A stretch of 38,733 nucleotides of DNA from a virus. Shown in pieces: positions 21,064 through 27,334 of this stretch. The notes under the pieces were generated by a model. That model was not told where the DNA came from and did no database searches. It saw nothing but the letters and a program-made list of their open reading frames with translations. The translations under genes and the position numbers were made by a program. The DNA is taken from positions 1 through 38,733 of IMG/VR virus record IMGVR_UViG_3300046167_000475. One strand, 5' to 3'. Position 1 is the first letter of the stretch; every line of letters starts with the position of its first letter.

Positions 21064-21921
21064 TTAGAAACTATAAACATCGTCTGGGTTAATTACTGTT
21101 GGCAATCCACTTTCGTCTAATTTAAAATCAAACTGCTCAAAAGGTGTATTTCTACTTCTCTTACAAGATACAGTTACAGCTCCTAACTTATTAGGGTCTC
21201 TCTCTAATTGTATTTGAGTTTCTGCTTTCTTCTCTAAGAAACTACCTAAATGACCAGTAGGCTTATCTGAACCAAAGTTAGAGTGTATTACTGTAATGAT
21301 ATGACAATCATAGATAGTAGTCCAAGCCATAATCTTCTGTACTACGAGATTTGACTCTTCAAGATTGTTTGCATCAGATACTAAATCTGCCACACCATCA
21401 ATAACTACAACTCCTATCTTCTTACCAGCATCTGTTAATGATTGTAAATAATATTCTATGAAGTTTATTCTATCTCTAAAACCTACTTTTCTTAATGCAA
21501 ATGTATGGTAAAAGTCTAAGTTAGATGTTTTATTCATCCATTGAATACGTTTAAATACTCTTTGTGAATGCCAGTCTCCTTGCTCTGTATCGAAATGGAT
21601 ATACTCTCTATCCTCTCTAAAGGATTTTAAACCAGATGTATGAGTTCCATTTGGGTTACAGTAAGCAGAACCTAATAAACTAACAAAGAATGTCTTCATA
21701 GACTTAGGAGGTGCTTGTATAAAGCTAAAGTTACCATAAGTACCTATTGGTATAGGAAACTCTTTAATCTCTCCGTCTCTTGTTACTACTTCTTTAGTTT
21801 TATAGCTAATTGCTACTGGAGGATGTTCTATCTTTTCATTAATGTTGATAGCACATTCTTCTTGTATCATTTGCATAGATAAGATATGCTCGTGCTTTTC
21901 TGCTTTTTGTTCTTCGCTCAT
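21064..21921 (-). CDS. RepA/RecA-like ATPase (AAA_25 type), putative replicative helicase
   Basis: 285 aa. The Walker A is APPKSMKT (70-77), Walker B is GVVVIDGVADLV (about 170-181), and a HSNFGSDKPTGHLGS loop follows. The arrangement fits hexameric RepA-like / RecA-fold ATPases that phages use as replicative helicases or recombinases. The N-terminal 55 residues are an extension. It lies in the replication operon after SSB and an 88-aa gene. Confidence 0.75.
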   Translation of the reverse strand: MSEEQKAEKHEHILSMQMIQEECAININEKIEHPPVAISYKTKEVVTRDGEIKEFPIPIGTYGNFSFIQAPPKSMKTFFVSLLGSAYCNPNGTHTSGLKSFREDREYIHFDTEQGDWHSQRVFKRIQWMNKTSNLDFYHTFALRKVGFRDRINFIEYYLQSLTDAGKKIGVVVIDGVADLVSDANNLEESNLVVQKIMAWTTIYDCHIITVIHSNFGSDKPTGHLGSFLEKKAETQIQLERDPNKLGAVTVSCKRSRNTPFEQFDFKLDESGLPTVINPDDVYSF

Positions 21922-22257: not shown

Positions 22258-22593
22258 TTAAAATGGTAAGTCGTCTGATATCTCTTCTGAAGGTACTCCT
22301 ATATCAGTTGCTGGTGCAGCTGCTTGAGATTTAAATACTTTCCAAGCTGTTAAGCTAACATAGTACTTCTCTTTGTACTCATTACCTCTAACATTAAAGT
22401 CTACGTCTACTACAGACCCTACCTTGTTGTACTTTAAGAAGTCATCTACTTTGTCTTGTACTATTTCAAACTTAACATCTTGAGGATATTTCTCATCGTT
22501 AGTTGTTAATACAAATTCTACTTTTTGGAATCCAGAGTCAAATACTTGTTTCTCTCCGATTAATTTAATTGTTCCAGTTAATTGTAAGCTCAT
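22258..22593 (-). CDS. Single-stranded DNA-binding protein, DUF3127 type
   Basis: 111 aa OB-fold-like protein with strands QLTGTIKLIGEKQVF, KVEFVLTTND, VGSVVDVDFNVRGNEY and YYVSLTAWKVF. The acidic tail ends EISDDLPF, as SSB proteins do to recruit partners. The family replaces classical SSB in many Bacteroidota phages. It is followed by a strong terminator, consistent with high dosage of SSB. Confidence 0.75.
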   Translation of the reverse strand: MSLQLTGTIKLIGEKQVFDSGFQKVEFVLTTNDEKYPQDVKFEIVQDKVDDFLKYNKVGSVVDVDFNVRGNEYKEKYYVSLTAWKVFKSQAAAPATDIGVPSEEISDDLPF

Positions 22594-22613: not shown

Positions 22614-23156
22614 TTATACTAATGATTTTTCTATTTCTGCTGATACTACATACTTAGTCTTTACTTGTGCTATAGTAAATTTACCTCCAGCTAAGGCTTC
22701 TTTTACTTTCTTATACTCTGGACTACCTAGCTTTAATGATGGCTTAGATTTACCGTGAGTATTACTAGCGTCAGCATCTTTAGTATCGTCTAATAATAAT
22801 AGGTTTCCAAGACTATACTTCTTACTGTATGAGCTAGCTGCTCCAGTTCGTTGTGGCATTTGCATTCCTTTAGCATCAAAGTCTATAATAGCTTGTGCAG
22901 TAGATGAGATTGAACTTTCTCTGTCTGTAGTGTCTAAGTCTATTACTTTAGCTTCTGAATGTACGAATACTTTACCAGCAACCTCTCTTAATTCATCACT
23001 AATTTTAAATAGTACTGAATACTTTTGTTCAAATGGTTTGATAGCTTCCAAGATATCTTCTGCTGAACGATACTTGTACTTTCCAAACGAATTGTACTGA
23101 TTCTTAGGTGCTTTAAGCTCTAATTGAATCTTTTGTAGTTTTTCTAAAATTGTCAT
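22614..23156 (-). CDS. ERF family single-strand annealing protein
   Basis: 180 aa. The ERF signature is clear: NSFGKYKYRSAEDILEAIKP (22-41), and later MPQRTGAASSYSKKYSL (about 100-116) then LLLDDTKDAD. It anneals single-stranded DNA in phage recombination and works with SSB, the next gene. The C-terminal part is a short helical domain (VKEALAGGKFTIAQVKTKY). Confidence 0.88.
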   Translation of the reverse strand: MTILEKLQKIQLELKAPKNQYNSFGKYKYRSAEDILEAIKPFEQKYSVLFKISDELREVAGKVFVHSEAKVIDLDTTDRESSISSTAQAIIDFDAKGMQMPQRTGAASSYSKKYSLGNLLLLDDTKDADASNTHGKSKPSLKLGSPEYKKVKEALAGGKFTIAQVKTKYVVSAEIEKSLV

Positions 23157-23332: not shown

Positions 23333-23350
23333 AGTTTCTGTTTTGAGATA

Positions 23351-23381
23351 CAAACCTACGAAATATAAATGACATACGCAA
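23351..23381 (-). promoter_or_regulatory. Class I promoter, copy 4 (replication operon)
   Basis: Minus strand TTG (23381-23379), 20 bases beginning CGTATGTCA, TAGGTTTG (23358-23351). It gives a leader of about 12 bases before the ATG at 23332. Main promoter for ERF, SSB and the downstream genes. Confidence 0.85.
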
Positions 23382-24757: not shown

Positions 24758-24795
24758 CAAAAAAAAGTAGGAAGGCTATGCAAGACCCTCCTACT
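24758..24795 (-). terminator. Strong intrinsic terminator
   Basis: Minus strand AGTAGGAGGG, loop, CCTTCCTACT, then eight T. It ends the transcript of the inactive M15 gene (stop at 24821). Confidence 0.75.
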
Positions 24796-24820: not shown

Positions 24821-25282
24821 CTAAAAATGTCGAAAACTAAGTTCTTCTTTGTGCAAATACCTTTCAGTATCAAAATATATGTATTCATCTGTTAATCTAA
24901 TTCTTTCAACCCCATATTGAATTAATCCTCTAACTAATCTGAATCTATGTGAAGGATTTATACATCTAAACTTTATCGCTTTGCCAACCCTATGTTCTGA
25001 ATTAATACCTAATCCTATTCTGTCTGCGTAAGCCTTCGATGTGTAGCCTAAATGTATGAAACCCTTTAATCTTTCTTTTCTAAATACTAAGTCTAGTATC
25101 TTTACTGGTTCACTCTCCATAAATCTTCTACCACTACCTAATGAATCTGGACTATCTAACATTGACCATTTAAGAACTTTTAAACCTTCTTCATCCATTT
25201 CCTTAGTATACTCATCTGTATATCTAGGTATGAAATCATTAAAGTTCTCTCTCTTCTTATATCCATTATCCTTCTTCTTCAT
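24821..25282 (-). CDS. Inactive paralogue of the M15 endolysin
   Basis: 153 aa from the ATG at 25282. It aligns along its length with the endolysin at 26336-26689: LDSPDSLGSGRRFME against FDSPDIQGSGQLMD, LGYTSKAYADRIG against SGYRTIRHNAEVG, and SEHRVGKAIKF against SSHLKGLAVDI. The first zinc ligand is kept (His97), but the Asp is replaced by Lys104 and the last His by Tyr136 (YFD for HVD). It cannot hold zinc in the usual way. It may bind peptidoglycan or regulate the active enzyme. An N-terminal extension of about 40 charged residues is unique to it. Confidence 0.65.
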   Translation of the reverse strand: MKKKDNGYKKRENFNDFIPRYTDEYTKEMDEEGLKVLKWSMLDSPDSLGSGRRFMESEPVKILDLVFRKERLKGFIHLGYTSKAYADRIGLGINSEHRVGKAIKFRCINPSHRFRLVRGLIQYGVERIRLTDEYIYFDTERYLHKEELSFRHF

Positions 25283-25361
25283 ACATCTAATATACAATAA
25301 ATATATTTAAAACATAATCATAGTTATTAACATTTATTTTCACTTTGTTAAAAACTTACTA

Positions 25362-25392
25362 TTGACTTTCTCACTTTTTTTTCGTACCTTTG
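25362..25392 (+). promoter_or_regulatory. Bacteroidota-type promoter for a candidate small RNA
   Basis: TTG (25362-25364), 20 bases, TACCTTTG (25385-25392). It lacks the TATGTC extension of the class I promoters, so it may be controlled differently. No good reading frame follows for more than 200 bases. Confidence 0.6.
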
Positions 25393-25398
25393 TTTTAT

Positions 25399-25523
25399 AT
25401 TTAAGGAAATAACAACCTTTGCTTCTCGCAAAGATATTAAATCATAAATATTTGCCCCTAAAGGCAAATAGTAATAAAAAAAGATATTGAAGAATTTGCG
25501 ATAGTTATGTTCAATTTTTTTTT
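25399..25523 (+). ncRNA. Candidate structured small RNA
   Basis: Downstream of the promoter at 25362-25392 lie a hairpin CTTTGC-TTCTC-GCAAAG (25417-25433), a stronger hairpin TATTTGCC-CCTAAA-GGCAAATA (25449-25470, eight pairs) and a terminator-like stem ATTGAA...TTCAAT (25486-25515) followed by nine T. The start is a guess at seven bases after the -7 box. No coding potential is visible. Both hairpins expose TTTGC/GCAAA words. Confidence 0.5.
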
Positions 25524-25555
25524 GAATAAATATTTAAAAATAAATGGTCTTTTAC

Positions 25556-25586
25556 TTGTGTATGTCATTTTAATTCTGTATATTTG
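25556..25586 (+). promoter_or_regulatory. Class I promoter, copy 7
   Basis: TTG (25556-25558), 20 bases beginning TGTATGTCA, TATATTTG (25579-25586). It drives the 45-aa gene on the plus strand, towards the lysis operon. Confidence 0.85.
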
Positions 25587-25612: not shown

Positions 25613-25750
25613 ATGGAATTTAAAGACAGAAACAATATAATAGAACAAAGCCTAAAAGCCTTTGAAAAAGAACATCCATTTTTAAGTAAGTGGATAAGTT
25701 TGAAAGTAAAGATTAAACTGTACTTACTTAATTTAAGAAACAGAGTTTAG
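25613..25750 (+). CDS. Small protein, 45 aa, convergent with the holin gene
   Basis: Starts MEFKDRNNIIEQSLKAFEKE and ends in a basic hydrophobic helix. It follows class I promoter copy 7. A six-codon frame (MKSYGI, ATG at 25602) overlaps its start and could limit translation. Its last four bases overlap the last four of the holin gene on the other strand, so readthrough would make antisense RNA to the lysis genes. Confidence 0.5.
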   Translation: MEFKDRNNIIEQSLKAFEKEHPFLSKWISLKVKIKLYLLNLRNRV

Positions 25751-26208
25751 TTTTTTCTAATCTTTTCCAATGTTCTAGCACCAAAGTAACCACCATAAGC
25801 TAACATAAGTAAGTTACCTAATAAAGATATCCATTGCTCGTCTATTTTAAAGCCTTCTAAGGAACTATCTAATATAATATAAGTAAACATACTAGCAGTT
25901 AAGAAAGCTAGGCTTAAAGGTCTTATATTTCTAGTTAAGTAAGAGTCTGTTTGATTATCGCTTTCCCATCTTTTAGTCACTTCTTGCATTTCAATAACAT
26001 CTTGCTCTAGTTCTTTAACTAACATTTCTTTTTCTACTTCAGTTAATTCTTTACTACCTCCTATAGCTTCTATTATATCAGAAACTTTACCTCCAGAGAT
26101 AGCGTCAATTAATTTAGGAGCTACTGCTTTACCAGTCTTAGCTATTCCTCTTAAGAGATTACCAAAGAAAGTTCCTTTACCGTTATTTTTTAATTTATTA
26201 TCACTCAT
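25747..26208 (-). CDS. Holin (3TM-type family)
   Basis: 153 aa. An N-terminal amphipathic part (LLRGIAKTGKAVAPKLIDAI), a charged helix (KEMLVKELEQDVIEMQEVTK), the RNIRPLSLAFLTASMFTYII span and a last span near LLGNLLMLAYGGYFGARTLE. The RxxRPLxL and GGYFGARTxEK patterns fit the phage holin family with three membrane segments. It is coupled by ATGA to the small membrane gene upstream and lies close to the endolysin. Confidence 0.7.
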   Translation of the reverse strand: MSDNKLKNNGKGTFFGNLLRGIAKTGKAVAPKLIDAISGGKVSDIIEAIGGSKELTEVEKEMLVKELEQDVIEMQEVTKRWESDNQTDSYLTRNIRPLSLAFLTASMFTYIILDSSLEGFKIDEQWISLLGNLLMLAYGGYFGARTLEKIRKN

Positions 26209-26348
26209 ATCATTAAGTATATTAAGAGCCCTATAAGAGCCACTCTATTAATTAGCATTAGTATTTTAGGGTATTTGACTGTGTTTAATGGAACGTATGC
26301 TCCAAATATCATCATAGTTGCGTGGAATATTAATTCTAGTAAACCCAT
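26205..26348 (-). CDS. Small membrane protein of the lysis cassette, 47 aa
   Basis: Two short hydrophobic spans (LELIFHATMMIFGAYVPL; VALIGLLIYLMI). The start lies inside the end of the endolysin gene and the stop overlaps the holin start as ATGA. It may act as a holin partner or antiholin. Confidence 0.55.
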   Translation of the reverse strand: MGLLELIFHATMMIFGAYVPLNTVKYPKILMLINRVALIGLLIYLMI

Positions 26349-26689
26349 ATTACATCACTTGACTTGTCAGAATCAATATCAACGTGAATAAATGTTTTAG
26401 CTATACCTATTCTGTTGAATCCAACTGATTTAAGAGCTTCTAAGAGATTATATCTATCTCTACTAGTACTACAAGCTATATCTACAGCAAGTCCTTTTAA
26501 ATGGCTTGATTTAGCCTTACCGCCTACTTCTGCATTATGTCTTATAGTTCTGTAACCAGAGTTTATTATTATTGGTTTACCATAAATCTCTCTAACTTCA
26601 TCTAGCATATCTAGAATCTTTCTATCCATTAACTGACCACTACCTTGTATGTCTGGGGAGTCAAACTCTTCGTAATTAAAGTATTTCAT
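26336..26689 (-). CDS. Endolysin, peptidase M15_3 type
   Basis: 117 aa, a complete minimal M15 domain. The zinc motif SSHLKGLAVD (His63, Asp70) and the closing HVD (His102, Asp104) are intact, as is the SGYRT core. It cleaves peptide cross-links of the cell wall to release progeny. There is no signal peptide, so it depends on a holin. It neighbours holin-like and membrane genes. Confidence 0.88.
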   Translation of the reverse strand: MKYFNYEEFDSPDIQGSGQLMDRKILDMLDEVREIYGKPIIINSGYRTIRHNAEVGGKAKSSHLKGLAVDIACSTSRDRYNLLEALKSVGFNRIGIAKTFIHVDIDSDKSSDVIWVY

Positions 26690-26692
26690 AAT

Positions 26693-27334
26693 TTATATTA
26701 ATAAGTTGCCTATTGCATTTACTTTTATCTTTAAACTCTGTATTACCGAGTCTCTATTTCTTTCAAATAACTCTGCATCTTTTTCAAGGCTAGGTTTTAA
26801 GTAATCTACACCGATTAAAGCAAACAAGTTTCCGTGTCTATAGTAAGGTAGTACTGCTATCCCTTTTATCTCTTGAGCTTTTAAAGTACTTCTAACATTA
26901 ATGTCTTCTATGGAATTAACGTCTGATACTATCATATTGTGATTTACAACATCCATTATCCAATCAGCATACAAAGCTGTAGGTATGTCTTGTAACATCT
27001 CTGCCTCTCTTGATACACCTCTAGCTACTACTTCATAATCACAACTCATTTTAGACTTATGAGAACCATTATAATAAGTTACACCATTATGAAACCTAAA
27101 AATATAAGCTCTATCTGAGTCAGTATTCTCCATAAACTCCTTTAGACTTCTGTTTATTAGTATATCATTCTTCAACGAACTAGATACCACGTCTTTATTA
27201 AACACGGTTAAGTCTATAGCTCTTATTATTGTGCTATTGAATATGTAAAGCAACGCTATAATAAACAATAGAGTTAATGTATAGCTCTTTAATCCTTTTA
27301 TTTCTTTTAGTAATTCTATTAGTTTTGTTATCAT
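26693..27334 (-). CDS. Membrane-anchored GAF-like protein
   Basis: 213 aa. One membrane span at about residues 17-35 (SYTLTLLFIIALLYIFNSTI) is followed by a soluble domain of about 150 residues with the GAF/PAS-like strand pattern RAYIFRFHNGVTYYNG ... IKGIAVLPYYRHGNLFALIG. It sits three bases before the endolysin gene in the lysis cassette. GAF domains sense small ligands or redox state, so a role in lysis timing is possible but unproven. Confidence 0.55.
   Translation of the reverse strand: MITKLIELLKEIKGLKSYTLTLLFIIALLYIFNSTIIRAIDLTVFNKDVVSSSLKNDILINRSLKEFMENTDSDRAYIFRFHNGVTYYNGSHKSKMSCDYEVVARGVSREAEMLQDIPTALYADWIMDVVNHNMIVSDVNSIEDINVRSTLKAQEIKGIAVLPYYRHGNLFALIGVDYLKPSLEKDAELFERNRDSVIQSLKIKVNAIGNLLI

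What the first reader, a model, noticed from the sequence alone, without database searches (positions are those of the whole stretch)
24821..25282. A dead copy of the endolysin kept beside the lysis cassette
The 153-aa protein aligns with the active M15 endolysin across the domain (shared DSPDxxGSG opening, GYxxxxxxA core, SxHxxGxA block), but two of three zinc ligands are changed (Asp to Lys104, His to Tyr136). The frame is intact and has its own terminator, so it is maintained. A wall-binding decoy, an endolysin inhibitor that times lysis, or a structural role are all possible. I know of no described phage system built on such a pair.
Basis: partly seen in the sequence, partly recalled or inferred. 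Interest (0 to 1): 0.75.

Follow-up and report, generated by a model that had tools for sequence, protein, structure and literature searches.

The report
Retired phage endolysin with new job
Many uncultured phages, probably of marine flavobacteria, keep a second copy of their wall-cutting enzyme that has lost its zinc site, become positively charged and gained its own promoters, so a lysis gene seems to have been turned into a non-cutting protein that is inherited with the DNA-replication genes.

Summary
The 153-aa ORF is a real M15-fold protein (confident model; best match Zn DD-peptidase 1lbu, Z 12) whose zinc Asp and second His are Lys104 and Tyr136; the substrate Arg is also lost (Thr81). 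It is not a one-off: 88 unique fully dead domains occur in uncultured viral contigs (none in 84,980 genomes, none recognised in the cultured phages searched), in one clade with intact and partly decayed members lying directly upstream of the ERF recombinase. The zinc site was lost at least twice, probably three times. Where this gene is intact it is usually the only M15 gene of its record; where it is dead an intact M15 endolysin sits elsewhere, usually upstream of the holin. Dead copies turned from acidic to basic (pI 6.3 to 9.4), have their own Bacteroidetes-type promoters (53/81; endolysins 4/67), are under purifying selection, and co-vary with the early AAA gene but not with the endolysin (Spearman 0.70 vs 0.07). 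In a few relatives they lie far from the lysis genes. So 'dead endolysin copy' is right, but 'kept for the lysis cassette' is not: an endolysin-timing inhibitor is disfavoured. I propose an exapted, probably early, anion-binding (nucleic-acid?) pseudoenzyme. Its ligand is unknown.

The parts
24821..25282 (-). M15-fold pseudoenzyme (153 aa; H97 kept, Asp->K104, His->Y136, Arg->T81)
24766..24795 (-). intrinsic terminator directly after the pseudoenzyme gene
25415..25470 (-). two terminator-like hairpins (25470-25449, 25435-25415) between holin and pseudoenzyme
25429..25436 (-). TATCTTTG, candidate -7 element 154 nt upstream of the pseudoenzyme start; weak in this window because it overlaps a hairpin; relatives L006-L008 have TATATTTG at -40
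25747..26208 (-). holin (153 aa)
   Evidence: phrog_3427
26336..26689 (-). M15_3 endolysin with complete zinc site (117 aa)
   Evidence: PF08291 1.4e-22; phrog_894 endolysin
22614..23156 (-). ERF ssDNA-annealing recombinase, early module that follows the pseudoenzyme in relatives
   Evidence: PF04404 1.6e-29, phrog_155
22258..22593 (-). single-strand DNA-binding protein
   Evidence: phrog_4932, DUF3127
21064..21921 (-). AAA_25 ATPase, early module; the gene whose divergence best tracks the pseudoenzyme
23349..23381 (-). early-type promoter (TTGCGTATGTCA ... TAGGTTTG) of the 57-aa/ERF operon, downstream of the pseudoenzyme gene

Best explanation
The gene descends from an active M15_3 endolysin that lay just upstream of the ERF recombinase. 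In phages that have another M15 endolysin (usually upstream of the holin), this copy lost its zinc site at least twice (probably three times) and was kept as a non-catalytic binding protein. Shown by computation: the M15 fold; loss of zinc ligands and substrate Arg; replacement of the old cleft by an equally conserved basic set (H97, R98, K/R104, R113, R127, Y136, D138, T139); own Bacteroidetes-type promoters in most dead copies; purifying selection; co-inheritance with the early genes (AAA above all) rather than with the endolysin. Inferred: it is a cytoplasmic protein made early and apart from lysis, and it uses the remodelled basic cleft to bind an anionic partner, most simply nucleic acid during recombination or replication.
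For: Model pLDDT 90.7, pTM 0.84; 1lbu Z 12.0 over 116 aa, LysECD7 8.4, LysB4 8.3. Among 88 unique dead domains His1 and Tyr are 100%, K/R at the Asp 89%, and alignment columns R67, K81, R82, R96, T108, D109 are 90-100%, while endolysin invariants (E10, R36, R50, D73, F103, H105) are gone. Tree: ERF-linked copies form one clade (100/97) with intact members; the dead state needs 3 changes, 2 forced by well-supported branches. pI 6.3 -> 7.8 -> 9.4 for intact, partial and dead. Long records: intact copy alone in 9/10; dead copy with an intact M15 elsewhere in 26/26. TAnnTTTG within 200 nt upstream: dead 53/81 (16/31 non-redundant), endolysins 4/67 (1/32), intact 1/21. Distances correlate with AAA 0.70, ERF 0.29, holin 0.28, endolysin 0.07 (Spearman); partial correlation with the endolysin given ERF 0.07. 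dN/dS about 0.1-0.25 against mostly 0.3-0.5 for the endolysin.
Against: No direct sign of nucleic-acid binding: positive charge alone is weak. No expression data; 'early' rests on promoter motifs, and the promoter in this window itself is doubtful. Dead copies lie upstream of the ERF-operon promoter (37/73 have one in the gap), so they are not in the ERF operon itself. The holin tracks the dead copy about as well as ERF does (0.28 vs 0.29), and in most phages the gene is still next to the holin. Co-variation can reflect shared inheritance of a DNA block rather than interaction. All relatives are uncultured contigs without proven completeness.
Confidence: 0.45

Rival explanations
1. Lysis timer: the dead copy binds the active endolysin (or holin) and delays lysis.
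For: It derives from an endolysin; it lies next to the holin in most phages; it dies only where an active M15 endolysin exists elsewhere.
Against: No co-variation with the endolysin (Spearman 0.07; L010/L013 have 88% identical dead copies but 27% identical endolysins). In L046 the endolysin is 8 kb away, and in L030/L034/L082 replication genes are the upstream neighbours. Own promoters.
Confidence: 0.17
2. Wall-binding or precursor-binding decoy: the domain still binds peptidoglycan stem peptide or its cytoplasmic precursor without cutting it, protecting the wall, blocking host enzymes or excluding later phages.
For: A common pseudoenzyme route; the M15 fold, His1 and the HxD aspartate are kept.
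Against: Substrate Arg and the endolysin-invariant Ser/Asn positions around the cleft are lost, so the old substrate site is not conserved; no export signal is apparent by eye in the N-terminus (no signal-peptide program was run).
Confidence: 0.17
3. New enzyme: the conserved His/Lys/Tyr/Asp/Arg set forms a different, zinc-free active site.
For: Cleft residues are as conserved as core residues, unlike a merely decayed site.
Against: The Asp position is K, R or Q and the Arg position T, V or L, looser than usual catalytic residues; one group (L258-L261) has lost even the first His.
Confidence: 0.1
4. Neutral relic of a duplicated endolysin that happens to be intact.
For: A few copies are truncated or split (L076, L078).
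Against: dN/dS about 0.1-0.25; more than 50 invariant columns among 16 sequences that are 59-88% identical to the window copy; wide spread; own promoters.
Confidence: 0.03

Closest known systems
Peptidase_M15_3 (PF08291) phage endolysins, including the window's own
   Same: Fold, first zinc His, DSPDxxGSG opening, HxD aspartate, ancestry
   Different: Two zinc ligands and substrate Arg replaced; basic; own promoters; not recognised by the Pfam model
Hedgehog N-terminal domains (the M15 pseudopeptidase listed in review PMC11266112)
   Same: M15-like fold with non-catalytic use; the pseudo-active site can serve as a binding surface; structural matches at Z about 7
   Different: Hedgehog keeps its zinc ligands (H140, D147, H182 in the review's table) and is a secreted animal protein; here zinc ligands are lost and the protein is a phage one
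alpha-MPP / beta-MPP, a pair of inactive and active metallopeptidase paralogues (PMC11266112)
   Same: Inactive paralogue beside an active one
   Different: There the two form a heterodimer; here the pair does not co-vary, so a fixed complex is unlikely
Holin/endolysin lysis of flavobacterial phages (PMC8776804)
   Same: Holin plus a peptidase-type endolysin as the lysis pair
   Different: No dead endolysin paralogue in the passages I searched

Membership tests
Active Peptidase_M15_3 endolysin | M15 fold | tested here: met
   Model pLDDT 90.7; 1lbu Z 12.0 over 116 residues
Active Peptidase_M15_3 endolysin | Zinc site His...Asp...His | tested here: not met
   H97 kept, K104, Y136; same loss in the window's close relatives that cover the site
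Active Peptidase_M15_3 endolysin | Substrate arginine of GYR | tested here: not met
   T81; T/V/L in nearly all dead copies
Active Peptidase_M15_3 endolysin | Scores above the Pfam PF08291 cut-off | tested here: not met
   No PF08291 match at E 1 for it or 15 close relatives
M15 pseudopeptidase (inactive metallopeptidase homologue) | Homology to active peptidases with conserved loss of catalytic residues under purifying selection | tested here: met
   hhalign 98.8%, dN/dS about 0.1-0.25, 88 unique dead domains
M15 pseudopeptidase (inactive metallopeptidase homologue) | No peptidase activity | not testable with these tools
   Inferred from lost ligands only
Endolysin inhibitor / lysis timer | Co-variation with its target endolysin | tested here: not met
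   Spearman 0.07, partial correlation 0.07; endolysin swapped under a constant dead copy
Early recombination/replication module protein | Stays with ERF/SSB/AAA when other neighbours change | tested here: met
   Early genes still follow it in L022, L030, L034, L046, L082 where lysis genes are not adjacent; 0.70 correlation with AAA
Early recombination/replication module protein | Same transcription unit as ERF | tested here: inconclusive
   Intact copies abut ERF, but dead copies often have an ERF promoter after them (37/73)

The most novel reading that the evidence does not exclude
A phage cell-wall hydrolase has been converted, with intermediates still surviving, into a nucleic-acid-binding or other early DNA-metabolism protein: a lysis gene that crossed into the recombination/replication module.
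Probability: 0.3. Interest if true: 0.8.

Novelty: new variant of a known kind. Interest (0 to 1): 0.6.

Why it matters
Pseudoenzymes are common in animals, but I found no described phage lysis pseudoenzyme in the papers searched. Here a whole series, from an intact endolysin through D->H and D->I states to a fully remodelled basic protein, survives at one genomic site, so how a lysis enzyme acquires a new role can be followed step by step and tested by mutating single residues. It also warns that genes next to a lysis cassette need not act in lysis.

Tried and rejected
Direct family searches of the 153-aa protein (Pfam, PHROGs, PDB sequences) found nothing. Cultured phages: tblastn with several family members found only generic M15 enzymes or nothing. 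No relatives in genome contigs, so no prophage or host link. I first read L022 as a phage with a dead copy and no endolysin, but its record breaks off in the tail-fibre gene where the lysis genes would be expected to follow, so this absence is inconclusive. I first placed the gene inside the ERF operon; the promoter found between the two in half of the loci argues against that. Rfam gave only sub-threshold hits around the intergenic block. Paper searches for an inactive phage endolysin paralogue found none.

Full report
The observation. The ORF at 24821-25282 (-) encodes 153 aa. It has no recognisable family by itself, but aligns with the 117-aa endolysin at 26336-26689 (-), a clear Peptidase_M15_3 protein, over the whole domain. 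The homology is strong at profile level (98.8% probability, E 4.9e-17, 108 columns). A model built from 61 relatives has pLDDT 90.7 and pTM 0.84; its best solved match is the zinc DD-peptidase 1lbu (Z 12.0, 2.8 A, 116 residues), followed by M15 endopeptidases and endolysins (Z 7.7-8.4) and Hedgehog domains (Z about 7). Foldseek alone ranks 1lbu first too, but only at E 0.016.

Not a one-off. Close relatives occur in 67 loci of uncultured viral contigs (a first scan gave 21), and searches with ERF and with more distant members brought in many more; together 88 unique fully dead domains were found, with none in bacterial or archaeal genomes and none recognised in cultured phages. In the close relatives that cover the sites the Asp position is K or R and the second His is Y; the first His is kept. 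L077, the most divergent of the first set, lacks the N-terminal extension. The AAA protein's named relatives are mostly flavobacterial phages, which together with the TAnnTTTG promoters points to Flavobacteriia as hosts.

An evolutionary series. Loci fetched by the ERF recombinase showed M15 genes in the same position with an intact zinc site (L089, L092, L099, L173, L190 type), with D->H (L104, L120, L200), with D->I and H->Y (L085, L087, L093, L096), or with D->K and H->Y (L100). In a tree of 74 domains the dead copies and their intact ERF-adjacent relatives form one clade of 40 (100/97) apart from the endolysins; the dead state requires three changes, two of them forced by well-supported branches. 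The usual order is endolysin - holin - dead copy - ERF - (SSB) - AAA. In ten long records with an intact ERF-adjacent copy it is the only M15 gene in nine (holin - M15 - ERF where looked at) and one of two in L099. In 26 long records with a dead copy, the window included, another M15 gene that Pfam recognises lies elsewhere (Fisher p 1e-7, not corrected for relatedness). L046 is one of these, with its endolysin 8 kb away. So the copy died only where another endolysin covered for it. L022 is left out because its record ends where the lysis genes would be expected.

It was remodelled, not just broken. In the dead clade the old cleft has a new conserved set: His (100%), the Arg after it (93%), K/R at the Asp (89%), Arg at columns 82 and 96 (99-100%), Tyr at the second His (100%), then F-D-T-D; the residues invariant or nearly so in active enzymes (E10, R36, P42, R50, N55, D73, F103, H105) are gone. 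That these columns line the cleft is inferred from the ligand positions in the sequence; I could not measure it on the model. Domain net charge rises from -1.7 (intact) through +1.0 (partial) to +5.2 (dead), pI from 6.3 to 9.4; endolysins are 6.8 (the intact class there includes four endolysin-type sequences, L130, L135, L143 and L151). dN/dS against close relatives is about 0.1-0.25, mostly lower than for the endolysin.

It left the lysis cassette. In this window 464 nt with two terminator-like hairpins separate holin and dead copy, and a strong terminator follows it. A TAnnTTTG element (the Bacteroidetes -7 box; PMC6847099) lies within 200 nt upstream in 53 of 81 dead copies, 16 of 31 after thinning to 80% identity, against 4 of 67 endolysins (1 of 32) and 1 of 21 intact copies. 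In this window the only candidate (TATCTTTG, -154) overlaps a hairpin and is doubtful; close relatives have TATATTTG at -40. In L022, L030, L034, L046 and L082 the genes upstream are not holin and endolysin, yet early genes (AAA, with ERF and/or SSB) still follow. Across 37 genomes with both genes, divergence of the dead copy tracks AAA (Spearman 0.70), ERF (0.29) and holin (0.28) but not the endolysin (0.07); L010 and L013 share an 88% identical dead copy but endolysins of 27% identity.

Interpretation. Shown: a conserved M15 pseudoenzyme descended from an ERF-adjacent endolysin, remodelled, mostly with its own promoter, and co-inherited with early genes. Inferred: cytoplasmic, early, binding an anionic partner through the former active site. 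Nucleic acid is the simplest guess, from charge and neighbours, but nothing here shows it. An endolysin inhibitor is disfavoured because its supposed target is freely exchanged; an effect on the holin is less well excluded. A wall- or precursor-binding decoy remains open. Relatedness among contigs inflates the counts, and co-variation may reflect joint inheritance of a DNA block; the missing link to the physically close endolysin is the reason I still give it weight.

Relation to the known. It most resembles a pseudopeptidase. It is not a member of the active M15_3 endolysins (zinc site tested, not met). The review of inactive metallopeptidases (PMC11266112) lists only Sonic hedgehog for M15 and does not use the word phage. 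I found no description of a dead endolysin paralogue, within an open-access library only.

Noticed in passing
25340-25560: Noncoding block upstream of the gene, 89-91% identical in L003, L007, L008, L009 and L021 although the adjacent gene has dS 0.8-1.0; a + strand Bacteroidetes-type promoter (TTG 25362, TACCTTTG 25385-25392), a fold with z -3.4 and a U-rich end near 25530 suggest a divergent small RNA. Rfam gives only sub-threshold RAGATH-27 (23.5 bits, cut-off 76.1).
   Followed up: partly
9644, 10228, 18795, 23349, 24378, 24716, 25556: Repeated phage promoter TTGYGTATGTCA followed by TAnnTTTG in front of early-type genes on both strands; a useful marker for transcription units.
   Followed up: partly
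upstream of intact and partly decayed copies among L085-L200: A TAnnTTTG on the opposite strand within 60 nt upstream in 18/21 intact and 11/14 partial copies: perhaps a divergent transcript running antisense towards the lysis genes.
   Followed up: no
26693-27334: 213-aa protein with an N-terminal membrane-like segment (by eye) and a weak GAF match (E 0.04) directly upstream of the endolysin.
   Followed up: no
L006:7348-7839, L010:7330-7830, L036:5335-5829: A 163-166 aa gene of unknown function on the opposite strand between holin and dead copy in some relatives.
   Followed up: no
L040 and L043: Two different dead copies on one 58-kb contig (IMGVR_UViG_3300046167_000289), about 37 kb apart: two joined phages or a chimeric assembly.
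   Followed up: no
L258, L260, L261: Group in which even the first zinc His is lost (state T-Y-R-E).
   Followed up: no
L121, L129, L136, L149: Dead copies with a CKCGxC element in place of DSPDxxGSG; could be a new metal site.
   Followed up: no
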